DNA from: Chiua virens | Lineage: Eukaryota; Basidiomycota; Agaricomycetes; Boletales; Boletaceae | Length of the DNA stretch: 64,000 nucleotides | Reading direction: 5' to 3' | Assembly (NCBI GenBank): GCA_019787685.1 | Contig: JAHNUO010000010.1 | Coordinates: 186,001-250,000 of the forward strand | Shown here: positions 6,704 to 58,908 of the stretch, piece by piece | How the letters are laid out: each line of letters starts with the position of its first letter | Position numbering within the stretch: position 1 is the first letter of the stretch | Notes under the pieces: generated by a model | Databases searched by the model: none | Told to the model about the DNA's origin: nothing | What the model saw: the letters and a program-made list of their open reading frames with translations, nothing else | Position numbers and translations under genes: made by a program

Positions 6704-9286
6704 ATGTCTCGCAGGTTACCCGGAACACTGGAGAACCGTGAGTCAATGGACGGAACCAATGAAATTATCGTACTGACGGAAATCCAACTGTCGGATGATG
6801 ACACTGCGCGAGCAGGAGGAAGCCCGGTTCAAGATAAAGGGGAGATTGAACGCCCAGTGACGGGGCTCCAGATGTCCTCCACTATGACCAGCCAGCGAAA
6901 TGTACGGAAGACAATCGAGATCGATGGGAGAGATGCCATATATTCAGTCGCGTTCCTGATGGAGGGAAAACACATTTTGAGTGGAGGAAAGCAAGAGAAA
7001 ATTCGACGATGGCGATTGGAGGATGGCCAAGAAATTGCAAGGCGAATGGATGTGGGGGGTTGGGCCAACAGCATTGCTGTATCAAGCGATGAGAAGTGGA
7101 TCGTGGGCGGTTCGGGTCGGGGAAGTGTGTCGGTATGGAGTGTGGAGAGCCATGAGCGGGTGGGCGAGATGGAAGGGCATCGAGAAGGAGTTATTGGGGT
7201 GGACATCTCGCCAGATGGGACTAAAATTGCTAGCGGATCGGATGATCACACTGCCTGCATCTGGAAGCGAGCGACGGGCGAGCGACTGCTGACACTACGA
7301 CACGGTGGCTCCACCGTGGTCGCGGTCAAATTTTCACCGGACGGACGTCTTCTCGCTACTGCTACCTGGAATCGCTCTGTTCGCATCTACAACAGCGGGA
7401 CTGGTCATCTTCTCCACGAATTCTCGATTCGACCTGGCTCAGATATCAACAACCAATGCCTTGCGTGGAACGACGACACACACCTCTACGCCATCTCTTT
7501 GGAGGGCATAATCCACTACCTCGACGTATCCACTGGAGAAACACTCTCACGATGGTCCATCTGCACCGATGGCAAGGGAAAACGGGGCTGCATTGCTCTG
7601 CCAAACAATCGTAATCTCATCGTAGCCTCTACTGAGACGTCAATATCGTTCTGGGATACGACAACGCACACGAAAATCGGGTCCAACATCGACTACAATG
7701 ACACGGTTTTTACAATGGCGATTTCAGACAACTACGATATTGCAATCGGTCATGGCAGGACAATCACCGTTCGGAACCTCGGTGATATCCTCCCTTGTCG
7801 CTATGTTCACAATGTAAGTATTCCAGCACCTTTAAGCCTTATATATGCATTATTGACTCAATTTCTACTGCCAACCCACCAGAACGTGGATCCCGGAGAA
7901 AGAACTTTGACGTCCCCTCGTACACATGCGAGTGCGTGCATCACCCAAGCTAGTCTAGACCACCAGTACTATGCTGATACCGATTTTTAATATCCAAAGA
8001 GATGACCGATCTCAAGAATGCCATGCGGGAACCGAAGGATCAACTTACAGAGTTCCAAGGCCGCCACGAGCTCCAGTCACGCGAACTCGCCTCGGCTCAA
8101 AAGGAGCTGGAGACGTTGAAATCATCTATCAAAGCCAAAGATCGTCAAATTAACGTACTTACTGCCGACGTGGACCACTGGAAACGCTCCGATGCCGCCA
8201 AAGCAGAAGAGCTCGCCGCTGCGAACAAGGAACTCGAGGAACGCCGTCGCGATTCAGAGGAGCTCATTGCCGTACGCAAGGAACTTCAGGTCTCCCAATC
8301 TCAATCCATCCAGATCCAGGAATGGTACGAAAAGCAGTTTAGACATCTCAAGTCCGTCGTCGAACAAAAGCAGCGTACCCCATTCATCGTGCAAAATTTC
8401 ATTGCTCAGGCGGACGCACGTGCGGAGATGAATATCATTGAAACACTTCAACAACTAAACTCGAGGATAGATTGGAGTTCCACGTTCATCGCCGATCGTA
8501 TCATTCACAATTTCCAGCCCCACGCTACGAATCCAACGGAGGAACATGTTTCTATTGCAGCTAGGGTCACCGGATCTATCGGACAATCTCTGGTGAACCG
8601 GTTACGGAGTAACTCACGCACCGAGGTCGTTGCGTATCTCCCTATCGCCTTTCGTGCCTATCTTATCTATCACCTGTGTGGGATCATGTCTTCGTGGTCC
8701 ATGGATAGCGGGCCCGATCGGCTTATCCGTGAATTATACAGCATAGTCCAAAAATTAGGTGAAGAACTAGATCTTAGTGTGCTGTTGATTGTTCTGCTGA
8801 TGGTAGATAACAGAATCGCAGACAATATCCGCCCGCTGGCGATCGCTCACGTACGCCTCTATTTCATCGACCTGTTCAAGCAACCCGGACATGCTTATCA
8901 CATCTACGGTGGACGGACTTTGTGATATCGTTGTCACCGCTGGTTGTGCCCCTTCCACCTCCGCTGCGAAAGAGATGATCGCGTCGAAATTCCAGAGTCG
9001 GATATCATTCATCCTCACCACCGCAGGGCAGCTCACCAAGTCGATGATGGATGCACTGTCGGCTGACTATCGAGTCGAGGTGATTCGTCCACCGAAGATG
9101 TTTGATGGGGAAACGATGGAGGTCGACTCGACAGGTCCAGGGGAAAAGTCGAGGAGCCAGTTTGTGTTATGCACGACGCAGTTGGGCTTGTCAAAGGAGG
9201 TCATCACGCAGTCAAACGTTGGTCCCAACAAGAAGAATACTCTTACGGTGACGAACGTCGTCAAAGCAAAGGTTATCCCGGGGTAA
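6704..9286 (+). CDS. WD40 propeller / coiled-coil / C-terminal helical domain protein, copy B
   Basis: The model is exons 6704-6737, 6816-7813, 7883-7931, 8000-8758 and 8814-9286 (770 residues, frame kept). After a short leader and a Gln/Asp/Lys-rich stretch, seven WD40 blades run from about 60 to 345, with typical turns such as VDISPDGTKIASGSDD, VKFSPDGRLLATATW and TITVRNLGDI; this would close a full propeller. A 16-residue exon links to a charged coiled coil at about 363-465 (KELETLKSSIKAKDRQ, ELEERRRDSEELIAVRKEL). The last 300 residues are helical and end with SARWRSLT and QFVLCTTQLGLSKE, motifs I associate with an uncharacterised domain common in Agaricomycete proteins. Intron 1 could be retained here because it is 78 bases and open, but copies C, D and F need it spliced. 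The exon 4 acceptor (CCAAAG) differs from its sisters. It is likely functional; the role is unknown. Confidence 0.85.
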
Positions 9287-9540
9287 GATGTGGTACTGTA
9301 CTGTTGTCACAGAGGTTCTGTTTCAACGTCTCTTTGCCACACGTCCATTTCTTTCCGTCTATCGTTTCCTGTAGTACGCGTCCTTTTTGTTCCAAGTCGA
9401 TCACCTATTGTGTTTGTATCGTCCTTGGCTGCTTTCGAGTCGTAGCCACTACATTCCAGCCATGTTCCCGAGCCGTACCATATTCACTTGCAGATCCGAA
9501 TGGTATCATGCTGTTTTTTCCTCTACTAGCTCACACTAGA
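9287..9540 (+). repeat. 3' flank shared by WD40 copies B, E and F
   Basis: The bases after the stop, with the TCGATCACCTATTGT and TGTATCGTCCTTGGC tracts, recur after copies E (54894-55070) and F (58909-59070). This is the probable 3' UTR and terminator region. Copies C and D carry a different but related 3' flank. Confidence 0.55.
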
Positions 9541-11289: not shown

Positions 11290-13875
11290 ATGTCTCGTAG
11301 GTTACCCGGAACACTGGAGAACCGTGAGTAAATGGGTGAGACTGATGAAATTATGGTTCTGACGAAAATCCAACTGTCGGATGATGACGCTGCGCGAGCA
11401 GGACTCGGAGGAGGCCCGGTTCAAGATAAAGGGAAGGAGGTTGAACGCCCAGTGACGGGGCTCCAGACGTCCTCCGCTGTAACCAGTCAGCAAAATATAC
11501 GGAAGACAATCGAGATCGATGGGAAAGATACCATATTTTCAGTGGCGTTCCTGGAGAGCAAGCACATTTTGAGTGGAGGACAGGAAGGGAAGTTTCGACG
11601 ATGGCGATCGGACGATGGCAAGGAAGTTGGAAGACCAATAGATGTGGGGATGAGGGGCAACGCCATTGCGACATCAAGGGATGGAAAGTGGATCGTGGGC
11701 GGATCAGGTCGGGGACCTGTGTTGGTGTGGAGTGTGGAGAGCAACGAGCAGGTGGGCGAGATGAGAGGACATCGAGCAGGAGTGAATACGGTGGACATCT
11801 CCCCAGATGGAACCAAAATTGCTAGCGGATCGTATGACGGCACTGCTTGCATCTGGGAGCGGTCGACGGGCGAGCAACTACTGACACGACGACACGACGA
11901 CACTGTAGTCGCGGTCAGATTTTCACCGGACGGACGTCTTCTCGCTACCGCTACCCGGAAATGCGCCTCTGTTCGTGTCTACGACAGCGAGGATGACCGT
12001 CTCCTTCATGATTTCTCAATCCAACCTGGCTCAGATGTTAACCAATGCCTTGCGTGGGATGATGACACACACCTCTACGCAATCTCTCGTGGCGGCAGCA
12101 TCCATTGTCTGAACGTATCCACGGGAGAAACACTCTCATGGCCCATCCGCACCGACGGCGTGGAAAAACGGGGCTGCATTGCTCTGCCGAACAATCGTAG
12201 CTTCATCGCGGCCTCTGCTGACTCGTCAATATCGTTTTGGGATCCAACGCACACGAAAATCGGATCCGACATCGACTACAATGACATGGTTTTTACAATG
12301 GCGATTTCAGAAAACTACGACATCGCAATTGGTCATGGCAAGACAGTCACCGTTCGGAACCTTGGTGATATTCTCCCTCCTAACTATGTTCACAATGTAA
12401 GTGTACCTGCACCATTAGTAGTAGGCATTGTGTGCCTTTTTGACACAATTTCCACCAGAATGTAGATCCCGGAGAACGAATGATGTCCCCTCGTACACAG
12501 GCAGGTGCGTGCATCACCCAAACTAGTCTGGACTATCTGTACGCTGACGCTGGTTCTCTGATACCCGAATTCACCAGACGACGAGATCACTGACTTCAAG
12601 AACTTGAAAGCCACGCGGGAACTGAAACATCAACTTACAGTGCTCCAAGACCGCCACGAGGCGCAGTCCCGCGAACTCACCTCGGCTCAAAAGGAGTTAG
12701 AGACCTTGAAATCGTCCATCAAAGCCAAAGATCGCCAAGTTGACGCCCTGACTGCTGACGTGGACCACTGGAAACGTTCCCATGGCGTCAAAGCAGAAGA
12801 ACTCGCCGCTGCGAACAAGGAACTCGAGGAACGCCGTCGTGATTCAGAGGAGCTCATTGCCGTGCGCGAGGAACTTCAGGTCTCCCAGTCTCAAATCATC
12901 CAGGTCCAGGAATGGTACGACGGGCAGTATCGACATCTCAAGTCCGTCATCGAGCAGAGTCAGCGCACACCATTTCTCGTGCAGAATTTCATTGCCCAGG
13001 CGGATGTACGTGCAGAGATGAATATCATCGAAACACTCCAACAACTCAACGAGAGGATAGATTGGAGTTCCATATTCATCACGGACCGTATCATTCATAA
13101 TTTCCAGCCCCGCACTACGAACCCGACAGAGGAACATGTTTCTATTGCGACGAGGGTCACCAAATTTATCGGACAATCTCTGGTGAACCGGTTACGGAGT
13201 AACTCACACGCCGAGGTCGTTGCGTATCTCCCTATCGCCTTTCGTGCCTATCTTATCTATTACTTGTGCGGGATCATGTCCTCGTGGTCCATGGATAGCG
13301 GGCCCGATCGGCTGATCCGTGAATTATACAGCATAGTCCGGAAACTCGGTGAGGAACTAATCTCAGCGCGCCACTGATTGTTCTGCTGATGGTGAATAAC
13401 AGAGTCACAAACGATATCTGCCCGCTGGCGATCGCTGACCTACACTTCTCTCTCACCGACCTGTTCAAGCAACCCGAGCATGCTTACCACATCTACGATG
13501 GACGGACTTTGTGATATAATCGTCACCGCGGGTTGTGCCCCTTCCATCTCTGCTGCGAAAGAAATGGTTGGGTCGAAATTCCGGGGTCGGATATCATTTA
13601 TCCTCACCACCGCAGGGCAGCTCACCAAATCGATCATGGACGCACTGTCGGCCGACTATCGAGTCGAGGCCATTCGTCCATTGAAGATGTTAGATGGACA
13701 AACAATGGAGGTCGACTCGACTAGTCCAGGGAAAAAGTCGAGGAGCCAGTTTGTGTTGTGCACCACACAGTTTGGCTTGTCAAAGGAAGTCATCACGCAG
13801 TCGAGGGTCGGTCACAACAAGAAGAATACCCTCACGGTGACGAATGTCGTCAAGGCAAAGGTTATCACAGGGTAA
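11290..13875 (+). CDS. WD40 propeller / coiled-coil / C-terminal helical domain protein, copy C
   Basis: Exons 11290-11323, 11402-12396, 12459-12504, 12578-13348 and 13403-13875 give 772 residues with the frame kept. Without removal of intron 1 (11324-11401, GTGAGT to AG) the leader MSRRLPGTLENRE hits a stop, so the splice is required if this start is used; otherwise translation must begin at ATG 11332. Seven blades, coiled coil and C-terminal domain are all intact and close to copies B and D. The 3' flank to about 14450 is duplicated after copy D, so C and D descend from a larger duplication. The coiled coil includes HWKRSHGVKAEELAAANKE; the protein ends near LTVTNVVKAKVITG. Confidence 0.85.
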
Positions 13876-21729: not shown

Positions 21730-24340
21730 ATGTCTCGCATGTTACCTGGAAAACTGGTGAACAGTGAGTAAATGGATGGGACCGATGAAATTACGGTACT
21801 GATGAAACCTCAACTGTCGGATGGTGGTCCCACGTCCCATGACGCTGCACGAGCAGGAGGAAGCCTGGTTCAAGATCAAGGGAAGGAGATTGAATGCCCA
21901 GTGATGGGGCCCCAGACGTCCTCCGCCATGACCAGTCAGCAAAATGTACGGAAGACAATCGAGATCGATGGGAGAGATGAAATCTGTTCAGTCGCGTTCC
22001 TGATGGAGGGCAAACATGTTTTGAGTGGAGGAAATGAAGAGAAAATTCGACGATGGCGATTGGAGGATGGCCAAGAAATTGCAAGGCCGATAGATGTAGG
22101 GGGTTTGGCCAACGCCATTGCTGTGTCAAGCGATGAGAAGTGGATCGTGGGCGGATCGAGTGGGGGTTCTGTGTTAGTGTGGAGCGTAGAGAGCCACGAG
22201 CAGGTGAGCGAGATGAAAGGACATATGAGCGCAGTGTATGCGGTGGATATCTCTCCAGATGGGACCAAAATTGCTAGCGGATCATGGGACGGCGCTGCCT
22301 GCATCTGGGAGCAGTCGACGGGCGAGCAACTGCTGGTACGACGACAACGCACCACTGTAGTCGTGGTCAAATTCTCACCAGACGGACATCTTCTCGCCAT
22401 TGCCACATGGTATTGCTCTGTTTGTGTCTACAACATCGAGGATGGTCGTCTCCTCTGCGAATTCTCAATCCGACCTGGCTCAACTTTCAACCAATGCCTT
22501 GCGTGGAACGACGACACACACATCTCCGCCATCTCTCGTGACGGTATAATCCACTACCTCAATGTCTCCACCGGAGAAACACTCTCACGATGGCTCATCC
22601 GCACCGACGGCGAGGGACAATGGGGCTGCATTGCTCTGTCAAAGAATCACAGCTTCATTGCAGCCTCCGCCGAGTCATTGATATCGTTCTGGGATGCGAC
22701 GACGCACACGAAAATTGGGTCCGACATCGACTACAATGACACGGTTAATACAATGGCGATTTCAGAAAACTATGACATCGCAATTGGTCATGGCAAGACA
22801 GTCACCGTTCAGAACCTCGGTGGTATCCTCCCTTCTCGCTATGTTCGCAATCATGATGTAAGCGTACCTGCACCAATAGGCCTTATATGTCTCATTGACT
22901 CAATTTCTATTGCCAACCTACTAGAATGTGGATCCCGGAGAGGGAATGACGTCACTTCGTCCACAGGCAGGTGCGTGTATCACCCAAACTAGTCTAGACC
23001 ATCAGCACGCTGACGCTGATTTCTGACATCCGAATCTACCAGACGATGAGATCACCGACCTCAAGAACTTGAAAGCCATGCAGGAACCGAATGATCAACT
23101 TACAGTGCTCCAAGGCCGCTATGAGGTGCAGTCGCGTAAACTCGCCTTGGCGCAGAAGGAGCTGGAGACCTTGAAATCATCCATTAAAGCTAAAGATCGC
23201 CAAATTGACGTACTTGCTGCCGACGTGGATCACTGGAAGCGTTCCGATGCCTCCAAAACAGAAGAACTCGCCGCTGTGCACAGAGAACTCGAGGAACGCC
23301 GTCGCGATTCAGAGGAGCTCATTGCCGTGCGCGAGGAACTTCAGGTCTCCCAGTCTCAAACCATCCAGATCCAGGAATGGTACGACGAGCAGTTTAGATA
23401 TCTCAAGTCCGTCGTCGAACAAAATCAGCGTACCCCATTCATCGTGCAAAATTTCATTGCTCAGGCGGACGCACGTGCGGAGATGAATATCATTGAAACA
23501 CTTCAACAACTCAACTCGAGGATAGATTGGAGTTCCACGTTCATCGCGGATCGTATCATTCACAATTTCGAGCCTCGCACTACGAACCCGACGGAGGAAC
23601 AAGTTTCTATTGCAGCTAGGGTCACCGGATCTATCGGACAATCTCTGGTGAACCGGTTACGGAGTAACTCACGCACCGAGGTCGTTGCATATCTCCCTAT
23701 CGCCTTTCGTGCCTATCTTATCTATCACTTGTGCGGGATCATGTCCTCGTGGTCCATGGATAGTGGGCCCGATCGGCTGATCCGTGAATTATACAGCATA
23801 GTCCGGAAACTCGGTGAGGAACTAATCTCAGCGTGCCACTGATTGTTCTGCTGATGGTGAATAACAGAGTCACAAACGATATCTGCCCGCTGGCGATCGC
23901 TAACCTATGCTGCTCTCTCACCGACCTGTTCAAGCAACCCAAGCATGCTTATCACATCTACGATGGATGGACTTTGTGATATAATCGTCACTGCTGGTTG
24001 TGCCCCTTCCGCCTCCGCTGCGAAAGAAATGATTGCGTCGAAATTCCGGGGTCGGATATCCTTCATCCTCACCACTGCGGGGCAACTCACGAAGTCGATC
24101 ATGAACGCACTGTCGGCCGACTATCGAATCGAGGCCATTCATCCACTGAAGGTGTTAGATGGACAAACAATGGAGGTTGACTCGGCTGGTCCAGGGAAAA
24201 AGTCGAGGAGCCAGTTTGTATTGTGCACGACGCAGTTGGGTTTGTCAAAGGAGGTCATCACGCAGTCTGGGGTCGGTCCCAACACGAAGAATACCCTTAC
24301 TGTGACGAACGTCGTTAAGGCAAAGGTTGTCATGGGGTAA
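21730..24340 (+). CDS. WD40 propeller / coiled-coil / C-terminal helical domain protein, copy D
   Basis: Exons 21730-21763, 21857-22857, 22925-22970, 23043-23813 and 23868-24340 give 774 residues with the frame kept. As in copy C, an in-frame TAA lies just inside intron 1 (after AACAGTGAG), so splicing at GTGAGT or use of ATG 21772 is needed. Exon 2 has two extra codons (His-Asp) before its donor. Blade 3 reads VDISPDGTKIASGSWDG and keeps the Trp of ACIWEQST that is a stop in copies E and F. The coiled coil and the C-terminal motifs SARWRSL and VLCTTQLGLSKE are intact. It is likely functional. Confidence 0.85.
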
Positions 24341-24976: not shown

Positions 24977-25990
24977 ACTTCATGACGCAATTTTGGATGT
25001 GCTCTCTTTGATCCGGTCATTGATTTTTCAATGACTGCTTGGGTCTCATAGTATTCCTTCTTCAACAACGTTTTTGGGTACATTTCCTATGAATCCTGAA
25101 CAATCTCGTTCTACAATGTTATATTTACCGTTCTCCTACCGCTTGTGATCGGAATATTCGATCCTTTTGTGTCGGCACGGAGATTGGATCGATATCCTCA
25201 GCTGTACTCGCTTGGACAGCGGAACGTGTTTTTGTACCAAGACGCTGTTTTAGCCATGGATCGGGAACGCGTTGTATGAGTATCACAATCTGGTGCGTTG
25301 TCTTCGAGCAGAACAGGAGTCGACGGATAATATTATAATGCGGTCGTATAGATTGTTTGACTTCTCCGTCATCTTGTTTGGGGTGATTTGAAACACGACG
25401 GGGGTTGGATTCGGGGCATCGGTTTTTGGACACGGCATTGAATCTGACGGTCTTGTTAACCGTGCTTGGCAAGGTGGCGTTGACCTCCGAGTATGTCTGC
25501 ATTTATTTTGAGAGGAATACCACTCGTTGACGATATCGCCAGCTTGTGGACAAAATACACCGTCGCTGCCATCTCCGGTTCGTTCGTGTTCACGATGCTC
25601 TTTCTCCCGCTCTATGCCTGGATCGCACCCATGCTCGGTTTTTCGACCGAGTACTATGGACTTGTCCCGCGTCTGTGGACGGACGCCGTGTTTTATTTCA
25701 TGCTGTTGCTCTTACCTGTCGTCTGCCTTGCGCGTGACCTCGCCTGGAAGTACTTTTCCACCCTCCGTCTGACTGAATGCAAACCCGCGGTTCCGTCTCA
25801 TCCGTTGCACTGCCCGCATCTTTTTTATCGCCTTTTGGAACTGTTCTTGACGCGGTCTATAATCCAATGTTGGACTTTAGAAGTTCTTGCGCAACGTGGT
25901 ACGACCGTGGGGCATACGTCGGGCGGTCCAGCGGCTGGATCAGACGCGGGTGATTCGGGAGTGGGGACACGCCATAGTACCATTGCGAGG
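24977..25990 (+). pseudogene. 3' part of a P4-ATPase gene, rearranged pseudogene
   Basis: This copies the last exons and introns of the flippase gene at 30630-35323 (minus) in the opposite orientation. It begins at MTQFW (exon 14), keeps intron sequence, and carries frameshifts and stops in the exon 15-16 part. From 25493 the frame is open through [20 protein letters not shown] and [17 protein letters not shown]. At 25755 to about 25930 a segment is inverted relative to the parent, after which the sense sequence resumes at LDQTRVI-like codons (SGWIRRG in the present frame). It has no catalytic domains and no function is expected. Confidence 0.88.
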
Positions 25991-38400: not shown

Positions 38401-39567
38401 CTATGCTTGAGAGGACACGTATCCAACGCCCGTCTCAGGACCAGTGAAAGACACATCGAGGTCAACAGTCGTCAGAGATGACATTGACCTTACCTGCGAC
38501 GTGAAATCGTCGTCGTCGTTCGCGTCCTCCGTGCTATCAGAGCCCACGTCACGCAACAGGAACCTGTACGTGTACGTCACAATCACAAGCAGGTTGCAGA
38601 CAATGATCGAGAGCGCGACCTGGAAGTGAGTGAGACAACGTCTACATGCCACAGAGTGCAGACTCGCCATGGCGTGCATACCGGCAATCATCACGGTGGT
38701 ATTGTTCAGGAACTGGCCGACCGTATGGAAAATTGCTGCGAAGGCCAGGACAACGCTCGAAGCGAAAATGGAGAGAATCATTCTCTTCTTACGTCGCGGC
38801 AACTTGACTTTCCAGAGCATGTGTAGAGGAAGGACAACGAGGATCAAAACTGCGACGCAATCACCTGAATATCCCAACAATAAGTATAAGGGACCCAAAC
38901 GTAGAACATAGACTTACTTGTGAATTGGAAGATTGCAATTTGTGCTGATGTCGGACAGGAAGGCCTTCCGGATGTATATATATGATGCCAGCTTGAATCC
39001 AAAGCACAAAGCACGGTCCTGGCAACGATAAGCACAGTCCAACATGCCGCGAAGAACGCTACACAGGCATAAGTGAATTTGAGAAGCCGTGGGGGTCCAT
39101 GGATAATTCTGATAACAGAAAATAACACACTCATACGTGCAGATCTATAATGGTAGGGAATGAGAACATGCACAGTCAACCACAAAAACGAATTCGCACG
39201 TCACGATGCAGGTGAAGCCAATCGAGCCGATCCACGCACCCACAATAGCACTCGGACCACCTGAGAGCATTTCCATGAACACGCAAATTCAGTGCCAGCA
39301 AATTTTGGCTTACTTGGGTGTTGCGCCCAAAACGTTATGACCCAGATTATTCCTGTTGCGAGCAAAATGGCCGCCCAGGCATCCTCCCACCAAAAACGGC
39401 CAATCTTGAAGCGAAAGCATATTCTCCATGCTGTGAAAACCAATCCGAATATTTCGACGACTTTTGCAGATACTTTTGGGAGATATTTGACGATGATCAG
39501 CGACAGTTTCGATCTGGTAACCTGAACTGTCCATACCCCGCACATAATATAAAGCACGCCTGGCCAT
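38401..39567 (-). CDS. Seven-helix membrane protein (fungal rhodopsin/Pth11-like), paralogue 2
   Basis: Exons 39567-39537, 39472-39314, 39260-39200, 39144-38918, 38864-38668 and 38619-38401 give 297 residues with the same six-exon plan and phases as paralogue 1. The fifth intron starts with GC (GCGAGT) where paralogue 1 has GTGAGT. It is 48 bases and open, so retention would add 16 residues before helix 7. Motifs include KIGRFWWEDAWAAILL, RMSVLFSVIRIIHGPP and TYACVAFFAACWTVLIVA, with the tail LTTVDLDVSFTGPETG. The acidic cluster EDANDDDDF matches paralogue 1. It appears intact. Confidence 0.83.
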
Positions 39568-39712
39568 TCTAGATTTGGTGACGTGAGGGACGAGAGTACT
39601 TGAATCACTTGGGATTGCCACACTCGTCTCTTATAGAGACGCGACAAGAACAAAATTAAGAGCGTTGACTCAGAGGTGACTCGATAAGTTTACCCATCCG
39701 GTCGTTATTAAT

Positions 39713-39730
39713 CAGTGAGCCTGCAGGGTC
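39713..39730. promoter_or_regulatory. Conserved motif upstream of seven-helix paralogue 2
   Basis: CAGTGAGCCTGCAGGGTC, identical to the motif at 37672-37689 and at a similar distance (about 146 bases) from the start. Confidence 0.45.
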
Positions 39731-39989
39731 TGGTGCAGCAACAACTTGAGCACAACCTTCAAAGGACTTACCATGTCACTTGGCGACCAACCACGGCCAC
39801 CTGCATACGTTAGTACCCAGAGACTAAGAGCAGGTATGATCACACCGTCGTGAAGGAAACCGCCGTAATGTAGCTGTCACGTATGAATGTCACCGCTGAT
39901 AGTCTGACGAGCATAAAATTATCTCCTGCTAACGTTCATCAGGCAAGCTGCGGGGGATGCGGCTCGCCTGGCTTCCAAGCAATGGCTTC

Positions 39990-42691
39990 TCTGCTCGAAA
40001 AACTTACGAGTCCAGTGGTGTACTGTGTGCTGTATAGTAACCTTGCCAATTCACAAAGGATGGGGTTGATCAACACATTCCCACATTACTGTATGATAAA
40101 TCAACATTGATGATAAGGGAAGCAGCGACTCGGAAACACCCATAGGATGACTCACCATCTATCAGTGTCATACAAGACGTGCATGGGAGTGCAATATGAA
40201 ACTGAATAGAATGTGACAGCAAGCCAGATCCAATCACAGGAAATACTATGGACAGTATCGTCCTCAGGCTTATGAATGGGAAGACGTGGATTGGGTCCTC
40301 GAAAGCCGCTGGCGCCTGTGTTGCTGGCTCCTTAATATCTGGACTGGCGCCAGTGAAATTCAAGGAGTTGAATTCTCGACTCGGATGTAAGGTCTGTTGG
40401 ATGTGCTGGGGAGGATCGCTGGACTTATGTTCTGTGTGGGGATGCAGTTGCACTGCGGACGTACCTGGCCAAGTCAACATTTTACCCAAATTTAGATTCC
40501 GCGTCAAGTGGGAACCAATCCAACAAGTTGAAGTAACAAAGTTGACATGTCCCTATGGTATGACATTGATATTCCACGTTCCCGATAGTGAACTCATATC
40601 CGATCACTGATGATAAACTTAGCGCCACTTCAGGCTGGCGGTTCTGTGACATAATTGCTGACCAAACTTGAAATTCACGCGCATCGCATTCTCACATGTA
40701 CAGCCCTCGACTTTCACAAGGTCACATCGACAAAATGTTCCTTTGGTCGGCATGGGCAAACGTCGTTGGGCCCGCGCTGATGCAGCCTCTCCCTTTCACT
40801 CTTTGAATTTCGCCGCACTTGCTGTTCAGGTGCTCGACTCGGAGTTGTCTCAAACCCAAAGCAGCATGCGCCTCCGAGCGACTCAAAAAGATTTCTCTTG
40901 GGCTTTGTATCATCTTTCTTAACGTGTACTGACCTCCAACCAAAGAACCCACTGCTTGCGTCAGTCACGCAGGCGGAGGCGCAGAAAGCCTTCGAGCAGC
41001 TCGAATGCCATTCGACTTACACGACGCTGTGTTATTATTTGTGGACTCAAGCGGGAGTCGCTGGTTGCCGACTGTATTGGGCGCTGTGAAGAACGAAGTG
41101 TTGACGACACGCCGCTGGGAGATCATGTGGAGCTTAGCCCAGCCCGTGATTCAACACGTTCTTGGTGATACGGCACGGTAATGAATTCTATTTAAGATAA
41201 ATTAACTATTGGCGTGTCACGTCGAATCCAAACGGTCAGTGCTTCAATGAATCAGTGGCTTAAATGTTGCTGCAGCAATATGCGTCACACCTGCAGATGG
41301 TTTTCCTTTATCGACATTCGTCTATGCGCGCCGTTGCTACCGTTACTCGACCAGGGATCACCTCTTTTCATCATCGAGTTGTTCGTTTCGCTATTGCAAC
41401 ATCCCAAGGCCTGATTCTTATACTCCCACCACTTGCTAAAGTCCACCCTTGCTCCGATTCCAACTCGTCGACGCAACCGCCAGTGCTGCCAGGACAACGA
41501 CCGCACTAGCTTCAGCCTCGCCCTGCACCAATCTTGCCTCCTTATCAAGGCCCCTGCGCACGACCAGTGCTATATCGTAGCATGTACAGGTGTTGTCGCC
41601 CGCACGGAGCTACCTGTTGCTGCATAGGAAACTCGACAGACTGGGTTACGAGGCATGGGTGGGGCTGGATCAGTTGTATATATGATGAAGGAGATGCTGA
41701 TATGATCTTGCCAAGGAGGCACCATTACAGATCCCCGAAGCTCGATTGGTCAACCAGGTCGTCACTAGGGTACACATCAAGCTTCAAAAGTCAAAGTTCA
41801 AGGTTCAAGCTCAAGCTCAAGTTCAAGTCTCGGTTCAAACTTCAACCATTATTCTAGGACCCGAGCTAAGCTCCAGTCATTAATTGGTTCATTACCCGAG
41901 GGTCGACCTCAATTTGGTTACGGATAACACGTTTATTATGTACTTGATGTAACAGCAGCGACACCTTGGCCTATCTAAGATGCAAACGGCCCCAACTCGG
42001 CCAACAAGTCCTTCCTGATTATGAGACTTTCCCTCATCCGCAGCACCGCTACGTGAGCGTTGTGTCGATTAACACTGCGTCGCATTACGGCGGCCGGCCC
42101 TCCGAGTCACTGACCTCAGACACCCACGGTGACTGAAATCGAGTAATCATAGCCTTTGACGTTACTATCGCGCGGCCATGAAAATTGCTTGTAGCCATCC
42201 AATGATCGTGATCCGTACAAAGTGATATATTTGCACGTTGACGAAGTGATACTTAGCGGTCATGCGCGCCAGTCGCATCGTTGCGTCGCGTGTGGCATCG
42301 TGGTAGAACCTCTGCATCTCAGATGGGGTGAGTTGAGAGTGATGGCGTTGTACTTAACGAGGGCGAAAGAGGATTATTATTGTTTACCATTGTTTGGCGG
42401 CTTTGGGGGTCTTTACCCTTCTCCCTTTTACGGGATACTTCTAGTTACGACTTAGTATTGTCACATCAATCGCCTCACCGCAACTCGCCTCCCTCATCAT
42501 ATCTGCCTTCGAATTTGTTAATTCGCGTGAAAAAAGCAGCATGGCGCTTGCTGCCAGTGGTAAGTCATAGATCCGAATTCCTAATCTGAGGCGTCCACGA
42601 GTTACATAACTTCTTAGAGGTTGACAAATGGTTTTAAAGGCCACCCTGGGCACCCTTTGATCCATCAAACACCTCATAAGCACCTTCCACC
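39990..42691. other. Long stretch without a supported gene
   Basis: Open frames include minus 40507-40070 (145 codons, one hydrophobic stretch FISLRTILSIVFPVIGSG), plus 40248-40610, its antisense, and minus 40968-40714. None has a domain, intron support or paralogue. From 42100 on, the sequence probably contains the promoter of the monooxygenase at 42692. A TTCAAG-rich simple repeat lies at 41775-41850. Confidence 0.4.
41775..41850. repeat. Imperfect TTCAAG/CTCAAG hexamer repeat
   Basis: About ten units of variants of TTCAAG, CTCAAG and TTCAAA run in tandem. It reads as a simple-sequence tract, not a coding repeat. Confidence 0.75.
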
Positions 42692-45315
<2,624 letters not shown>

Positions 45316-45590
45316 AAAAGTTTGCGAATATTGTAAAAATAGAGAATTATCCATGTACTACTAGTATGACGGATGTTTCGCGAACGAGTTCTTTGAACAA
45401 CCAAACCCCTCGGACCGCAACTAACCTTATGTTCCACACGGTAGGTGTGGCAGTTTTGTCGGCTTTGTGTGCAAAGTATGTACTATCTACTCCCCTCAGG
45501 GGACTTACCACTTTCGGCTTGGCTAATCAGGTAAGCGACGCAACCTTTTCATCTCCGCGTTGAATTCCAACTCCCAACGTCACTGGAACA
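45316..45590. promoter_or_regulatory. Promoter region of the GAPDH gene
   Basis: The 275 bases between the monooxygenase stop and the GAPDH start must hold the 3' UTR of one and the promoter of the other. An open frame at 45312-45563 (one hydrophobic stretch, VGVAVLSALCAKYVL) is not convincing. I see no clear TATA box. Confidence 0.35.
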
Positions 45591-47027
<1,437 letters not shown>

Positions 47028-47368
47028 GTGAGTCAAGTCATTTCTCTCCACAAAAAATTGGTTTGGCAATGGTTCGGTAAGGATGTTGTACGATAGTCGG
47101 AGTGCGCAGTTGTCGTTCTCGCTATCTTATTCATATCTATTCCTCGTCGAATGCCTGTACTGCGATCATCGCCGCCACTGGCGGTCCCGAGGCCTCGACG
47201 AGAATGCATCACATCAATGCCAGAAAAGATAGATGAGTACTCTGATCCAGGGACCACGACTCCGTAATTTGAGATTATCACGAATCAAAAGTCAGTATTT
47301 ACAGATAGTAGTAGCAGGTATTCACGTTAGTAGGTGTGTCATTCAGTGAGGAGGATGAGGCTGTTCGT
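47028..47368. other. Intergenic, nothing recognised
   Basis: GAPDH 3' flank and 3' flank of the minus-strand seven-helix paralogue 3. No coding sequence supported. Confidence 0.4.
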
Positions 47369-48580
47369 TCACGCGCGCAACTCATTCCCGGTCGACATTT
47401 GAGTTGAATCGCTCCCTGTTACGACGCCTGTCTCGGGGCCGGTGAAAGACGCGTCGAGGTCGACAGTCGTCAAATGAACGGTCGTTGCCCGCGACGTGAA
47501 ATCATCGTCCTCGCTCGTATCTTCCGTGCTACTCGCTGTATCGGAATCAAGCGTCACGTAACAAGAACCTGTACGTGTATGTCACGACCACAAGCAAATT
47601 ACAGACGACGATGGAGAGCGCGACCTGGAAGCGCATTTCAACAACAGCTCAAGATGTATAATGCCAACACACCTCAGCATGCATGCCGGCCGTCATCACG
47701 ACGGAGATATTCTGAAATTGGCCAACCGTGTGGAAGAGTGCGCCAAGGGCGAGGACAACGCTTGAGGCGAAAATGGAGAGAATCATCCTCCTCTGACGTC
47801 TGGGCAACTTCACTCGCCAAAGCATGATCAGAGGAATGGCAACAAGCATCGAGGCTGCAATACAATCAGCTGAAAGTTTGGTAGGATCAGTACGAGGGAT
47901 TGCCAAGTACGAAAGTGAACTTGCTTGTCAGTTGAAAGATCGTGATGTGCACCTTGAGCAGACACGATGGTGCTCCGAATGTATATACCCGATGCCAACT
48001 GCTAACAGAAGCACACTGTACGACCTTCTCGACGATGATGATTGTCCAACATGCCGCGAAGAACGCCACACAGGCATACGTGAGGCCAAGAAGACGAGAC
48101 CGTCCATGGATGATCCTGATGACAGAATATAAAATGCTCATCCGCGCCAGGCTGTACCCTTGACATGTAAGCACGTATAGACAGGCGAAAACCGTAGAGA
48201 CGCACGTCACGATGCATGTGAATCCGATTGAGTCAATCCACCCAGCCACAATGGAGGTCAGGCCATCTAACCAGGCGTTCCGTTTCTCTGAGCACGCGAC
48301 TTGAATGACCTGGCAAGTTCTGACTCACTCGAGTTTATATATATCCGCCACTGCTATGAGCCAAACCACGCCCGTGAAAAGCAACATTGCCGCCCATGCA
48401 TCCTCCCACCAAAAACGGCCGATCTTGATGCGAAAATATACTCTCCATGCCGTCAAAATTAACCCTAAACCCTCGACAACCGCAGCGGCGACTTGTAGTA
48501 GAAATAATTAATACATTATCAGACTGATAAATTGAGGAACTGTCCGTACCCCGCACATAAAAGACAGCTGGATGGGACAT
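47369..48580 (-). pseudogene. Seven-helix membrane protein, paralogue 3, two frame lesions
   Basis: The same six-exon plan as paralogues 1 and 2: start MSHPAVFYVR at 48580, then GLGLILTAWRVYFRIKIG, FWWEDAWAAMLLFTGVVWL, WIDSIGFTCIVT, RMSILYSVIRIIHG and TYACVAFFAACWTIIIV, with FASSVVLALGALFHTVGQF and CNLLVVVTYTYRFLLRDA further on. Lesion 1: in the loop after helix 2, a TA-run (about 48335-48350) leaves the frame one base off before the next exon. Lesion 2: after RFLLRDA a stop (47550-47548) cuts off the acidic tail, which is still readable in the next frame (LTTVDLDASFTGPETG). If lesion 1 were bypassed, the product would keep all helices but lack the tail. Confidence 0.75.
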
Positions 48581-48774
48581 TACAGATTCAGTGTCAAGGG
48601 GAGGAATGCGTGTATACACCACAAAATGCTTGGATCACTTGGTATTTATATTATCGAGCGTCGTTCTTTATGGATAAAGTTGGCGGCAAGAGAAATGTAT
48701 AGGGCATCGAATTCAATGGATGGTCCGCCAGTCGCGGCGTGACAATTCTGACCCGTTAGATCATTACCAATAAG

Positions 48775-48793
48775 TAGTGGACCTGCAGGGTCT
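48775..48793. promoter_or_regulatory. Conserved motif upstream of seven-helix paralogue 3
   Basis: GTAGTGGACCTGCAGGGTC, a variant of the motif before paralogues 1 and 2 with the CCTGCAGG core kept, about 200 bases before the start. Confidence 0.4.
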
Positions 48794-49538
48794 GGTGACT
48801 GTAATGATTTGGGAAAAGATCTTTTTAAAATATTTCCGCGTATGTTCCTAGAGTTCTAGACGATAGCAGGGCGACGATAGCAAGTTGAAGAAGCTCACCG
48901 GTACTCAGAGGTCATCGACCGAAAGTGAACTGGCACGCAGTCGTGGGAGAAATCTCTGAGCTCTGAACTTCCCTGAAAGGTTCATCCATTTTGAAACACA
49001 CCGGTGATTCATAGGAGTGACTGAGTGAGCGCTAGTGAGCCACGGTTCCTCGTTGATTAACTAGATTAGGCAAAGGCACACTTGATCATATATACGTATG
49101 GAGATGTACCTCTCAGAGGCATCCATAACAGCCACATCAATATTTAGCAGAGATCTAAATGTGAGATTTGAATAGATGGATAGGTATGATCCAATCAGAC
49201 CTCAGCTGGAGAGGTTGAGGCGACCACTACGCGAAAGTCGGGATGCTCCGATCTAATTCAAAGACCGCCAACTTTTTTGATGTCTGGTGCTTCCGGTGTT
49301 CCGACAGCTGTGGCTGACGATGTTTTACGCCAGCCTCTGCTGGAGAGGCCTCTGCTGGAGAGTCCTCTGATTTATAATTAGAAATTTACCCAATAGATAC
49401 ATCGAGAAATCACATGTTAGTTGGCCGCTGTGATTTGGTACCACGTCTCGGTGAATGCACGCACAAGTTCTTCCTGACATACATTCGGGATTGAGCGCTT
49501 CCCATCCCGACACTCACCCAGAGTCAACAAAAGACGTG
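48794..49538. other. Intergenic, no gene
   Basis: AT-rich stretch with a short tandem of CCTCTGCTGGAGAG at 49332-49365. No coding sequence supported. Confidence 0.4.
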
Positions 49539-50592
49539 TTAGGGCCAACAGTCGGTCGGAGATAAGTCCATTTCTGTAGCTGTTGGCCTTGCTCGCATCG
49601 TGAAATCATCAGCATCGCTGCTATCCTCCATGCTCTCGATTGATATGGCAGACTTACCGGGGTTACGCAGCAGGAACCTGTACGTGTATTGGAGTCTCAC
49701 CACGCTATGCATACCGGCAATCATCACGGTCGAGATATCCAGGATCTGACCAACCGTATAGGAAAACCGCTCCGAAGGCTAGGACAACACTCGAAGCAAA
49801 ATGGAGAGAATCATTCTCTTCTTACGTCGTGGCAATTTGACTTTCCATAGTATGTGTAGAGGAATGACAACGAGAATCGAAACTGTGACGCAATCAGCTG
49901 ATACCCCAATTCAGCATCATAAGCATAAGGGATCGAACATGAAACATGAGCTTACTTGTGAATTGAAAGATTGTAATCTGTGCCGTTGTCGGACAGGAAG
50001 ACCTTCCGGATGTATGTGGATGATGTCAGCTTGGATCCAAGGCACACTGCACGGCCTTGGCGACAATAAGTACTGTCCAACATGCCGCGAAGAACGCTAC
50101 ACAGGCGTAGGTGAACTTGAGAAGCCGCGGCGGTCCACGGATAATTCTGATGATAGAAAATAACACACTGATGTGTGCAGATCTATAATGATGGGGCATA
50201 AGAACCAAAACAGACGACAGAAAAAATGAATCCGTACGTTACGATGCCCCCATGATGGAAATCACACCATCTAAGTGTAAAGACTTCCTTGAACGAATAA
50301 TTTGAGTGATCCAACAATTCCGATTTACCTGAGAATTCAGGGTCCAATATGTCATGACCCAGATTATTCCTGTTGCAAGCAAAATGGCCCCGCCCCATGT
50401 GTCCTCCCACTAAGAATGGCCAATCTCGAGGCAAAAGTATCCTCCATGCTGTCAAAGATAATCCGAGGATCTCGATCGACAATCGTGACACAAACTTTTA
50501 GGTGAGATATTGAGAATGGTCAGCGACAGTTTCGAACTGGTAGTGTGATGGATTGTTCGTACCTGCACATGAAATAGAGCTCGATCGGACAT
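49539..50592 (-). pseudogene. Seven-helix membrane protein, paralogue 4, decayed
   Basis: The start ATG at 50592 and exon 1 still match. In exon 2 the segment after ILGLSLTAWRI is frameshifted (LPRDWPFLVGGH against RIGRFWWEDAW) and has deletions. Helices 4-6 are recognisable in pieces (TYACVAFFAACWTVLIVAK). The end of exon 5, its intron and most of helix 7 are gone: MHSVV joins directly to YTYRFLLRN. The tail is altered too (EDSSDADDF). Non-functional. Confidence 0.82.
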
Positions 50593-52285: not shown

Positions 52286-54893
52286 ATGTCTCGTGCATTA
52301 CTTGGAAAACTGCTGAACAGTGAGTCAATGGATGGGACCGATGAAATTACATTACTAACGAAAATGCAACTGTCGGATGATGGTTCCACATCCCTTGACG
52401 CTGCACGAGCAGGAGCTTCAGGAAACCTGGTTCAAGATCAAGAGAAGGAGATTGAACGTCCAGTGATGGGGCCCCAGACGTCCTCCGCTATGATCAGTCA
52501 GCAAAATGTACAGAAGACAAGCAAGATTGATGGGAGATATGATGTCTATTCAGTTGCGTTCCTGACGGAGGACAAGCATATTTTGAGTGCAGGAAAGGAA
52601 GGGAAAATTCGGCGATGGCAATTGGAGGATGGCAAAAAAGTTGCAAGGCCGATAGATGCGGGGGATTGGGCCAACGCCATTGCGGTATCAAGGGATGGGA
52701 AGTGGATCGTGGGCGGTTCAAGTCGGGGATCTGTGTCGGTGTGTCGGGTGGAGAGCAACGAGCAGGTGGGCGAGATGAGAGGACACACAAGAGGAGTGTA
52801 TGCGGTGGATATCTCGCCAGATGGGACCAAAATTGCTAGCGGATCAAGGGACAGCACTGCTTGCGTCTAGGAGCGGTCGACGGGCGAGCGACTGCTGGAA
52901 CTACGACATGACAACTGGGTGGCCGCGGTCAGATTCTCACCGGACGGACGTTTTCTTGCTACTGCCACCTGGAATCACTCTGTTCGCGTCTACAACGTCG
53001 AGGATGGCCATCTCCTTCAAAAATTCTCAATCCAACCTGGCTCAGATATTAACCAATGCCTTGCGTGGAATGACGACACACGTCTCTACACCATCTCTCG
53101 TGATGGTAAAATGCACTACCTCGATGTCTCCACCGGAGAAACACTCTCACGATGGCTCATCCGCACAGACGGCGCGGGAAAATGGGGCTGCATCGCTCTG
53201 CCAAACAATCGCAGCTTCATCGCGGCCTCTTGCAACTCATCGATATCGTTCTGGGATGCGACGACGCACATCAAAATCGGGTCTGACATCAACTACGACA
53301 GCCGCATCTTGGCATTGGCGATTTCAGAAAACTACGACATCGCAATTGCTCATAGCAATACAATCACCGTTCGGAACCTTGGTGATATCCTCCCTCCTAA
53401 CTATGTTCACAATGTAAGTGTACCTGCAGAATTAGGACTTCTATGTGCCTTATTGACTCAATTCCTACTGCCAACCCACCAGAATGTGGATCCTGGAGAA
53501 AGAATGACGTCCCCTTGTACACAGGCAGGTGCATGCATCACCCAAACTAGTCTAGACCATCAGTACGCTGACGCCGGTCTTCTGACACCCGAATCCATCA
53601 GATAAAGAGCTCGCCGACCTCAAGAAAGCCGTGCAGGAACTGAAGGATCAACTTACAGTGCTCCAAGACCGCCACGAGGCGCAGTCGCGTGAACTCGTCT
53701 CGGCTCAAAAGGAGCTGGAGACGTTGAAAACATCCATTAAAGCCAAAGATCGCCAAGTTGACGCTCTTACTGCTGACGTGGACCACTGGAAAAGTTCCCA
53801 TGCCGTCAAAACAGAAGAACTCGCCGCTGCGAACAAGGAACTCGAGGAACGCCGTCGTGATTCAGAGGAGCTCATTGCCGTGCGCAAGGAACTCCAGTTC
53901 TCCCAATCTCAGACTGTCCAGGCCCGGAAATGGTACGATGAGCAGTTCAGACAGCTCAAGTCCGTCGTCGAACAAAATCAGCGTACACCATTCATCGTGC
54001 AAAATTTCATTGCTCAGGCCGACGCACGTGCGGAGACGAATATCATCGAAACACTCCAACAACTCAATGAGAAGATAGATTGGAGTTCCACATTCATCGC
54101 CGATCGTATCATTCACAATTTCCAGCCCCGCACTACGGACCCGACAGAGGAACAGGTTTCTATTGCAACGAGGGTCACCGAATGTATCGGACAATCTCTG
54201 GTGAATCGATTACGGAGTAACTCACGCACCGAGGTCGTTGCGTATCTCTGTATCGCCTTTCGTGCCTACCTTATCTATCACCTGTGTCGAATCATGTCTT
54301 CGTGGTCCATGGATAGCGGGCCCGATCGGCTGATCCGTGAATTATACAGCATAGTCCGGAAATTAGGTGAAGAACTAATCTCAGCGCGCCACTGATTGTT
54401 CTGCTGATGGTGAATAACAGAGTCACAAACGATATCTGCCCGCTGGCGATCGCTGACCTACACTTCTCTCTCACCGACCTGTTCAAACAGCCCAAGCATG
54501 CTTATCACATCTACGATGGACGGACTTTGTGATATCATTGTCACTGCTGGTTGTGCCCCTTCCATCTCCGCTGCGAAGGAGATGATCGGGTCGAAATTCC
54601 GGGGTCGGTTATCCTTCATCCTTACCACCGCGGGACAACTCACTAAGTCGATGATGGACGCACTGTCGGCTGACTATCGAGTCGAAGCGATTCGTCCATT
54701 GAAGATGTTAGATGGACAAACAATGGAGGTCGACTCGGCTGGTGCAGGAAAAAAGTCGAGGGGTCAGTTTGTATTGTGCACCACGCAATTGGGCTTGTCA
54801 AAGGAGGTCACCACGCAGCCAAACGTCGGTCCCAACAAGAAGAATATCCTTATGGTGACGAACGTCATCAAGGCAAAGGTTCTCACGGGATAA
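52286..54893 (+). pseudogene. WD40 family copy E, full length with one nonsense codon
   Basis: Exons 52286-52319, 52413-53413, 53483-53528, 53602-54366 and 54421-54893 keep the frame (772 residues plus stop), but codon TAG at 52868-52870 replaces the Trp of ACIWE in blade 3 (here TACV then stop). Everything else is intact: all splice sites, seven blades, coiled coil and C-terminal domain. A truncated product of about 177 residues would contain fewer than three blades. Alternatively, this is a recent loss with the rest not yet decayed. The coiled-coil part alone could in principle be made from an internal start. Confidence 0.85.
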
Positions 54894-56306: not shown

Positions 56307-58908
56307 ATGTCTGATAGGTCACCCAGAAAACTGGAGAACAGTGAGTCAATGGATGGGACCGATGAAATTACGGTACTGACGAAAACTCAACTATCGGATG
56401 GTGGTCCCACGTCCCATAATGCTGCATGAGCAGAAAGAAGCCCGGTTCAATATCAAGGGAAGGAGATTGAACGCCCAGTGACGGGGCCCCAGACATCCTC
56501 CGCTATGACCAGTCAGCAAAATGTACGGAAGACAATCGAGATCGATGGGAGAGATGCCATATATTCAGTCGCGTTCCTGATGGAGGGCAAACATGTTTTG
56601 AGTGGAGGAAAGGAAGAGAAAATTCGACGATGGCGATTGGAGGATGGCAAGGAAGTTGCGAGGCCAATGGATGTGGGGGGTTGGGCCAACGCCATTGCTG
56701 TGTCAAGTGATGGGAAGTGGATCGTGGGCGGTTCAAGTCGAGGACCTGTGTCGGTGTGGAGTGTGGAGAGCCATGAGCGGGTGGTTGAGATGAAAGGACA
56801 CCGAGAAGGAGTTATTGGGGTGGACATCTCCCGAGATGGGACTAAAATTGCTAGCGGATCGGATGATCGCACTGCCTGCATCTGAGAGCGGTCGACGGGC
56901 GAGCAACTGCTGAATCTGCAACACGACAACTGGGTGGCCGCGGTCAAATTCTCACCGGATGGACGTCTTCTCGCTACCGCTGCCTGGGGTCAGTCTGTTC
57001 GTGTCTACAGCAGTGAAGATGGCCATCTCCTCCAAGAATTCCCAATCCGACCTGGCTCAACTTTTAATCAATGTCTTGCGTGGAACGACGCCACACACCT
57101 CTACGTCATCTCTTTAGACAGCAGAATCCACTACCTCGATGTCTCCACCGAAGAAATACTCTCACAGTGGCCCATCCGCAAGAACGGCGCGGGAAAACGG
57201 GGCTGCATCGCTCTGCCAAACAACCGTACTTTCATCGCAGTCTCTGTCCACTCGTCAGTATCATTCTGGGATACGACGACGCACACGAAAATTAGGTCTG
57301 ACATCGACTACAATGGCCTCGTCTGGACAATAGCGATTTCAGAAAACTACGACATTGCAATCGGTCATGGCAAGACAATCACCGTTCGGAACCTCGGTGA
57401 TATCCTCCCTCCAAACTATCTTCACAATGTAAGTGTACCTGCACCAAATAGGTCTATATGTGCCTTATTGACTCAATTTCTACTGCCAATGGACTAGAAT
57501 GTGGATCCTGGAGAAAGAACGACGTCCCCTCGTACACAGGCAGGTGTGTGCATCACCTAAACTAGTCTAGACCATCAGTACGCTAACGCCGGTCTTCTGA
57601 CACCCGAATCCATCAGATGAAGAGCTTGCCGACCTCAAGAAAGCCGTGCAGGAACTGAAGGATCAACTTACAATACTCCAAGGCCGCCACGAGGCGCAAT
57701 CACGCGAACTCGCCTCCACACAAAAGGACCTCGAGACGTTGAAATCATCTAATGAAGCAAAAGATCGTCAGATTGACGTCCTTGCTGCCGACGTGGACCA
57801 CTGGAAACGTTCTGATGCCGCTAAAACAGCAGAGCTCGCTGCTGCACACAGGGAACTCGAGGAGCGCCGTCGCGATTCAGAGGAACTCGTCGCTGTGCGC
57901 GAGGAATTGCAGTTCTCCCAATCTGAAACCATCCAGATCCAGGAATGGTACGACGAGCAGTTTAGACATCTCAAGTCCGTCGTCGAACAAAATCAACGTA
58001 CTTCATTCATCGTGCAAAATTTCATTGCTCAGGCGGACGCACGTGCGGAGATGAATATCATCGAAACACTCCAACAGCTCAACGAGAAGATAGATTGGAG
58101 TTCCACGTTCATCGCGGATCGTATCATTCACAAGTTCGAGCCCTGCGCTACGAACCCGACGGAGGAACAAATTTCGATTGCAAAGAGGGTCACTGGATCC
58201 CTCGGACAATCTATGGTGAATCGATTACGGAGTAGCTCACGCGCCGAGGTCGTTGCGTATCTCCCTATCGCCTTTCGCGCCTACATGATCTATCACCTGT
58301 GCGGAATCATGTCTTCGTGGTGCATGGATAGTGGGCCCGATTGGCTGATTCGTGAATTATACAGCATACTCCGGAAATCAGGTGAAGAACTAATCTCAGC
58401 GTGTCATTGATTACGTTGCTGACGGTGAATAATAGAGTCACAAACGATATCTGCCCGCTGGCGATCGCTGACCTACGCTTCTCTCTCACCGACCTGTTCA
58501 AGCAACCCGGACATGCTTATCACATCTACGATGGATGGACTTTGTGATATCATTGTCACTGCTGGTTGTGCCCCTTCCACCTCCGCTGCGAAAGAGATGA
58601 TCGTGTCGAAATTCCGGGGTCGGATATCCTTCATCCTCACCACTGCGGGGCGGCTCACCAAGTTGATCATGAACGCACTGTCGGCCGACTATCGAGTCGA
58701 GGCGATTCGTCCACCGAAGATGTTAGATGGACAAACCATGGAGGTCGACTCGGCTGGTGCAGGGAAAAAGTCGAGGAGCCAGTTTGTGTTGTGTACCACG
58801 CAATTGGGCTTGTCGAAGGAGGTCATCACGCAGTCAAACGTCGGTCCCAACAAGAAGAATACCCTTACTGTGACGAACGTCGTCAAGGCAAAGGTTCTCA
58901 CGGGATAA
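56307..58908 (+). pseudogene. WD40 family copy F, full length with one nonsense codon
   Basis: Exons 56307-56340, 56434-57428, 57498-57543, 57617-58381 and 58436-58908 keep the frame (770 residues plus stop). A TGA at 56426-56428 lies inside intron 1 and is removed by splicing. A second TGA at 56883-56885 is in exon 2 and replaces the blade 3 Trp (ACI then stop, then ERSTGEQLL). This is the same codon that is TAG in copy E. The remaining blades, coiled coil and C-terminal domain are intact. It is a pseudogene unless the stop is bypassed; the lack of other damage suggests recent loss. Confidence 0.85.

What the first reader, a model, noticed from the sequence alone, without database searches (positions are those of the whole stretch)
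6704..58908. Six-member family fusing a WD40 propeller, a coiled coil and an uncharacterised Agaricomycete C-terminal domain
Five full copies (B, C, D, E, F) and one broken copy (A) lie in 64 kb. All full copies fit one five-exon model with the same phases and total lengths of 2313-2325 coding bases, which strongly supports the fusion: the propeller and the C-terminal domain are one protein, not neighbours. The C-terminal motifs (SARWRSLT, VLCTTQLGLSKE) recall an uncharacterised domain I associate with many mushroom-forming fungi. A sensor or scaffold role is only inference from propeller plus coiled coil in a fast-duplicating family.
Basis: partly seen in the sequence, partly recalled or inferred. 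Interest (0 to 1): 0.8.

Follow-up and report, generated by a model that had tools for sequence, protein, structure and literature searches.

The report
Diversifying WD40 receptor-like family in mushroom
A boletus mushroom carries a large family of genes that each join a variable protein-binding propeller to a coil and a constant, unnamed tail, and the propellers vary at the same kind of positions that some fungal self/non-self receptors use to recognise partners.

Summary
Copies B, C and D are intact five-exon genes (770-774 aa). E and F are not full: each has an in-frame stop at the same propeller codon. A is cut by the window edge. The organism is Chiua virens (Boletaceae), and the family is not six-membered: one array on this contig holds 17 tail loci over about 160 kb, and at least 110 tail loci are detectable in the assembly, haplotype duplicates included. 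In 79 of 110 a family-type WD40 lies within 1 kb upstream on the same strand (controls 1 and 0 of 110), so the fusion is well supported. The tail has no match over a cut-off in Pfam or NCBIfam and no convincing PDB sequence match. At 2 of 110 loci coil and tail follow a different N-terminal domain, one annotated as a single protein. Paralogue differences concentrate on the top face of the seven-bladed propeller, at positions selected in Podospora HET-D/HET-E; the site enrichment repeats in other paralogues. The tail is strongly conserved. No NACHT lies in the array and the repeats are not homogeneous, so these are not NACHT-type NLRs. Best reading: a duplication-driven recognition family with a constant output tail. 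The mechanism is inferred.

The parts
6704..9286 (+). Copy B, 770 aa, five exons 6704-6737, 6816-7813, 7883-7931, 8000-8758, 8814-9286; open
   Evidence: second-haplotype copy open, 96.1% identical
11290..13875 (+). Copy C, 772 aa, exons 11290-11323, 11402-12396, 12459-12504, 12578-13348, 13403-13875; open
   Evidence: projected coding part of the second-haplotype copy 100% identical
21730..24340 (+). Copy D, 774 aa, exons 21730-21763, 21857-22857, 22925-22970, 23043-23813, 23868-24340; open. NCBI protein P0001 (791 aa) is this gene with a different start (no intron 1)
52286..54893 (+). Copy E, same five-exon model but TAG at 52868-52870 inside the propeller
56307..58908 (+). Copy F, same five-exon model but TGA at 56883-56885 at the same propeller codon as in E
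1..408 (-). Copy A, 5' end only; the gene continues out of the window to C10:183966
21857..22857 (+). Copy D exon 2: seven-bladed WD40 propeller (P0001 residues about 58-358)
23043..23813 (+). Copy D exon 4: coiled coil, then first half of the conserved C-terminal domain
23868..24340 (+). Copy D exon 5: second half of the C-terminal domain (SARWRSLT ... VLCTTQLGLSKE ... KAKV)
   Evidence: no match over a curated cut-off for family coil-plus-tail proteins in Pfam or NCBIfam; best PDB profile hit E 0.03 (37)

Best explanation
This is a large, tandemly duplicated family of proteins, each an N-terminal seven-bladed WD40 propeller, a coiled coil and a constant C-terminal domain. Shown: the family size, the conserved gene model that fuses the parts, the predicted propeller fold, and that paralogues vary mostly on the propeller top face while the tail is conserved. 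Inferred: each propeller is a recognition head that binds a different partner protein through its top face, the coil makes oligomers, and the constant tail passes on one common output. New specificities would arise by whole-gene duplication and divergence, with some copies lost (E, F). It works like the sensing half of a fungal WD40 NLR but without a NACHT switch.
For: Fusion. Propeller. Gradient of constraint over 36 pairs of 9 C10 copies (A, E, F included, stops masked): dN/dS 0.45 in WD40, 0.27 in coil, 0.21 in tail. Mean pairwise residue difference 0.35 and 0.47 in top loops (DA, BC) against 0.18 and 0.25 in bottom loops (5 of 20000 permutations). pN/pS 0.79 for top loops against 0.32 for bottom loops and 0.42 for strands; 6 of 500 random codon sets reach the ratio of the 42 top sites (those sites were chosen after the variability was seen). 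Positions equivalent to HET-D/E codons 7, 9, 25 and 27 (PMC1805685, passages) are hypervariable in 13 of 28 against 40 of 288 overall (P 9e-6), and in 6 stop-free C10 copies (A left out) in 14 of 28 against 56 of 288 (P 1e-4). The site test repeats in 10 other propellers (9 on C9, 1 on C20) with the positions fixed beforehand: 14 of 28 against 43 of 288, P 3e-6; top-bottom contrast 76 of 20000. One coil-plus-tail with a different N-terminal domain is a single NCBI protein, P0008.
Against: pN/pS at top sites stays below 1 (0.79-0.88), so positive selection is not shown; relaxed constraint could give part of the pattern. The site mapping was first made after I had seen the variability; strand d of blade 2 and the register of blades 4, 5 and 7 were set by hand, and the hypervariability threshold differs. 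In the 7-copy C9 group the top-bottom contrast is weak (992 of 20000). No negative control with ordinary WD40 paralogues was run. No expression, ligand or output is known; the tail model has low confidence.
Confidence: 0.45

Rival explanations
1. An ordinary scaffold or adaptor family: duplicated copies keep one binding job, and the top loops merely tolerate change.
For: dN/dS below 1 on average in every region; pN/pS at top sites below 1; WD40 proteins are commonly scaffolds (general knowledge).
Against: Bottom loops and strands are not similarly free to vary; enrichment falls on the HET-E-type sites in two separate sets of paralogues.
Confidence: 0.3
2. Partner of separate NLRs: the propeller-coil-tail proteins act with NACHT proteins encoded elsewhere, as helper or decoy.
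For: The genome holds NACHT matches: 44, for example C17:236315 just upstream of a homogeneous WD40 repeat frame.
Against: No NACHT match in the C10 array, 0 of 44 between 170 and 335 kb; no evidence of interaction.
Confidence: 0.12
3. Non-functional amplification: a repeated gene spread by segmental duplication and decaying.
For: Stops in E, F and h6 and a frameshift in h243; a Copia gag match nearby.
Against: 11 of 15 spliced copies have no internal stop or frameshift; tail dN/dS 0.21; exon length changes keep the frame in 14 of 15.
Confidence: 0.08

Closest known systems
Podospora anserina HNWD/NWD family (HET-E, HET-D, HET-R): HET-NACHT-WD40 allorecognition NLRs
   Same: WD40 propeller in a duplicated family, with variation concentrated on the top face, in d-a and b-c loops, as described in PMC1805685 (passages)
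   Different: No NACHT found, propeller at the N-terminus instead of the C-terminus, blades on average 21% alike instead of near-identical shuffled repeats, extra coil and tail, no demonstrated positive selection
Protease-WD40/ANK/TPR sensors beside fungal gasdermin genes (PMC12881547, passages)
   Same: A WD40-type repeat sensor that can be fused to a signalling part other than a NACHT; so WD40 sensors without NACHT are already proposed in fungi
   Different: There the signalling part is a protease; here it is a coil and an unnamed tail with no protease match in Pfam. Gasdermin genes were not searched for here
NACHT-WD40 genes of the same genome (L007, C17:237-239 kb)
   Same: WD40 repeats in a multicopy fungal family
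   Different: 13 repeat units averaging 83% identity (the only one of three loci tried that gave units in the frame read) with a NACHT match upstream; the window family has neither
Coiled-coil plus WD40 proteins such as ATG16, Tup1, Groucho, LIS1 (recalled; LIS1 appears as a fold match)
   Same: Coil and propeller in one chain
   Different: There the propeller is at the C-terminus (recalled); here it is N-terminal and followed by a third conserved domain
JVU11DRAFT_1177 (P0008), Chiua virens hypothetical protein
   Same: Coil and C-terminal domain of the same family
   Different: A different N-terminal domain of about 230 aa without a Pfam match instead of a propeller

Membership tests
WD40 seven-bladed beta-propeller | WD40 repeats over the Pfam cut-off and a propeller fold | tested here: met
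Fungal NLR (NACHT-WD40) | NACHT domain in the gene | tested here: not met
   0 of 44 PF05729 matches lie in C10:170-335 kb; none among the 25 of 41 Pfam families shown for copy B
Fungal NLR (NB-ARC type) | NB-ARC domain | not tested
   No separate NB-ARC search was run; none among the 25 of 41 families shown
HET-E/HET-D (HNWD) | Near-identical internal WD40 repeats | tested here: not met
   Blade-blade identity mean 0.21, maximum 0.31 over 21 pairs of P0001, blade limits set by me; contrast L007, 13 units, mean 0.83
HET-E/HET-D (HNWD) | Diversification at d-a and b-c loop positions of the top face | tested here: met
   position definition from passages of PMC1805685
HET-E/HET-D (HNWD) | Positive selection (rate ratio above 1) at these codons | tested here: not met
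   pN/pS pooled over the top sites 0.79-0.88; no site-by-site likelihood test was run
HET-E/HET-D (HNWD) | Causes incompatibility or cell death | not testable with these tools
   needs experiments
Coil-propeller proteins (ATG16/Tup1/Groucho type) | Coil N-terminal to the propeller (recalled) | tested here: not met
   Propeller first, coil second in P0001

The most novel reading that the evidence does not exclude
A new modular class of fungal recognition proteins: a constant coil-plus-tail output unit joined to exchangeable N-terminal heads. The heads are mostly WD40 propellers diversifying at their binding face, but also at least one different domain and perhaps ATPase-like and GTPase-like domains. 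It is amplified to around a hundred loci in one mushroom assembly and serves non-self or partner recognition without a NACHT switch.
Probability: 0.25. Interest if true: 0.8.

Novelty: new variant of a known kind. Interest (0 to 1): 0.58.

Why it matters
Recognition by WD40 propellers is established in fungi for NACHT proteins of Podospora (PMC1805685, passages), and WD40 sensors fused to proteases have been proposed too (PMC12881547, passages). A family that shows the HET-E-type hot spots of variation, but without NACHT, without homogeneous repeats and with its own constant tail, would be another way to build a recognition repertoire, and would offer candidate genes for recognition in mushroom-forming fungi. 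It also exposes an unnamed conserved domain found at around 110 loci of one assembly.

Tried and rejected
Tail fold: two AlphaFold2 jobs gave low confidence outside the propeller and part of the coil (in P0001 the tail is under 50 except about residues 660-694; P0013 mean pLDDT 48), so no fold search was made for the tail; the only fold search reports the propeller. Tail by sequence: no match over a curated cut-off in Pfam or NCBIfam; weak hits are mostly to coils. The PDB profile search gave 12 hits with E 0.03-0.93, mostly coils.

Other N-terminal domains: the ORF before the tail on C37 (apparently allelic to C7) and similar ones on C54 and C1 recall an Hsp70-like ATPase (motifs DIGTTFSG and DAGGGTVDLS, recalled), and the one on C12 recalls a GTPase-like protein. 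Neither has a convincing Pfam or PDB match, and PF00012 and PF01926 searches of the genome do not list these places, so the names are not supported and the fusions at these loci are only proximity. Six tail loci were counted in the Hsp70-like class, but four of them look like two haplotype pairs (C37/C7), one pair at 2.2 kb distance.

Counts: 110 tail loci and 127 WD40 loci are clusters of match lists (partly cut in the output), include haplotype duplicates and are not gene counts. From only 11 matches were added to the tail list. 23 of 110 tail loci have no N-terminal match from my three queries, and 48 of 127 WD40 loci have no tail found downstream. One of the 23 (C1:229718) does have WD40-like ORFs upstream when read.

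Copies dropped: the dN/dS and site tests used 9 C10 copies or 6 of them; the six C33 copies were left out as allelic or apparently so, and further array copies were not fetched whole. The 6-copy set also leaves out copy A, although A has no internal stop. The output label '7 without stop/A' actually holds 6 copies. One search used 10 of the C9 and C20 propellers listed. In one search two of three NACHT-type loci tried (L001, L003) gave no repeat units in the frame read.

Literature: nine searches listed no paper that, by title and start of abstract, describes this family; several lists were capped (for example 20 of 290 and 12 of 661). Only PMC1805685, PMC9815663, PMC4986451, PMC12881547 and PMC10197012 were opened, and only passages were seen.
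Full report
What is there. The window is C10:186001-250000 of a 48.3 Mb, 136-contig assembly. NCBI-named hits on a contig of the same length, one of them (P0001) matching copy D at 100% over the stretches compared, identify it as Chiua virens, Boletaceae. Five copies on the + strand fit one five-exon model with coding lengths of 2313-2325. B, C and D are open (770, 772, 774 aa). E and F each carry an in-frame stop at the same propeller Trp codon, TAG at 52868 and TGA at 56883, and the six-frame genome search sees the same stops. Copy A is a minus-strand gene starting at window position 408 and running out of the window. It has no internal stop, but its first intron lacks the expected AG.

Gene model. 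Across 15 spliced copies, 9 on C10 and 6 on contig C33, exon lengths keep the mod-3 pattern 1,2,1,0,2 in 14 of 15, while introns range from 54 to 93 nt, leaving aside the odd first intron of A and its C33 counterpart. Eleven of 15 have no internal stop or frameshift; E, F and h6 have a stop and h243 a frameshift. C33 is a second haplotype: C33:246869-280600 matches window 1601-35293 at 98.8%. The C33 counterparts of B, C and D are open and 96.1, 100 and 98.2% identical in the projected coding part. E and F lie beyond the fetched and matching stretch of C33, so their alleles were not seen.

Family size and fusion. Clustering the tail matches, with 11 matches added, gives 110 loci (haplotype duplicates included, lists partly cut). 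79 of 110 have a family-type WD40 within 1 kb upstream on the same strand; 1 of 110 has one within 1 kb downstream on the same strand and 0 of 110 on the opposite strand. Seventeen tail loci lie between 171 and 335 kb on C10, and many more on C9. Two loci (C2, C85) have another N-terminal domain instead, and the C2 one is annotated by NCBI as a single protein, P0008. The ENA protein P0009 carries coil plus tail without a propeller, as far as its gene model goes, and its tail is at most 57% identical to anything listed in this genome, so the domain is probably not confined to this species.

Where the copies differ. Over 36 pairs of 9 C10 copies, dN/dS falls from 0.45 (propeller) to 0.27 (coil) to 0.21 (tail); the short N-terminus is at 0.68. 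Within the propeller the top loops differ more than the bottom loops (mean pairwise difference 0.35 and 0.47 against 0.18 and 0.25; 5 of 20000 permutations), and pN/pS is 0.79 for top loops against 0.32 for bottom loops (0.88 against 0.32 in 6 intact copies). In HET-D/HET-E, four codons per repeat are under positive selection, two in the d-a loop and two in the b-c turn (PMC1805685, passages). The equivalent 28 positions here are hypervariable in 13 of 28 against 40 of 288 over the whole propeller. Ten propellers from C9 and C20, tested with these positions fixed, give 14 of 28 against 43 of 288 (P 3e-6) and a top-bottom contrast of 76 of 20000; the 7-copy C9 group gives 14 of 28 against 50 of 288 (P 3e-5), but its top-bottom contrast is weak (992 of 20000). 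The ratio does not exceed 1 at these sites, so the result shows concentrated variation, not proven positive selection.

What it is not. No NACHT match lies in the array (0 of 44 between C10:170 and 335 kb). The blades of copy D are 21% alike on average, whereas one WD40 frame just downstream of a NACHT match in the same genome has 13 units at 83%. So the family does not belong to the HET-E type by domain order, NACHT or repeat homogeneity, yet its pattern of variation resembles the recognition face of that type. NACHT-less WD40 sensors fused to proteases are already discussed for fungi (PMC12881547, passages), so lack of NACHT alone is not new.

Mechanism. Supported by sequence: one gene encodes propeller, coil and tail; paralogues vary at the top face; the tail is conserved. 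Inferred: the propeller recognises varying protein partners, the coil oligomerises, and the tail gives a shared output. The identity of partners and output is unknown.

Noticed in passing
window 25003-25754 and 30878-31621; 34508-35374: Fragments matching C-terminal and N-terminal parts of phospholipid-flippase P-type ATPases; inverted repeats of 231 and 354 nt, 84% and 95% complementary, lie at 25003-25754 and 30878-31621, one overlapping the C-terminal fragment.
   Followed up: no
window 36597-50235: A second repeated stretch in four copies (two pairs, 61-84% identical to the reference copies); one ORF there (38404-38913, minus) has a weak, sub-cut-off match to the fungal rhodopsin domain.
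   Followed up: no
window 44644-45312 and 46176-46634: Phenol hydroxylase dimerisation domain and GAPDH C-terminal domain on the + strand between copies D and E.
   Followed up: no
window 60066-60653 and 62148-63950: Copia-type gag match and a 528-nt inverted repeat, 95% complementary, with 747 nt between the arms.
   Followed up: no
C10:250457-251533 and 259100-259975: A WD40 locus without a tail downstream and a tail locus without a WD40 upstream, about 7.5 kb apart on the same strand: possibly one gene split by an insertion.
   Followed up: no
E 52868-52870 and F 56883-56885: Two copies carry different stop codons at the same codon, Trp in B, C and D (both one G-to-A change away from TGG), an unexplained coincidence.
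   Followed up: partly
C41 and C42 WD40 loci: Several tail matches downstream of C41/C42 propellers appeared in the list only with the P0009 query, so more diverged tails exist and the 48 of 127 WD40 loci without a tail is probably an overestimate.
   Followed up: partly
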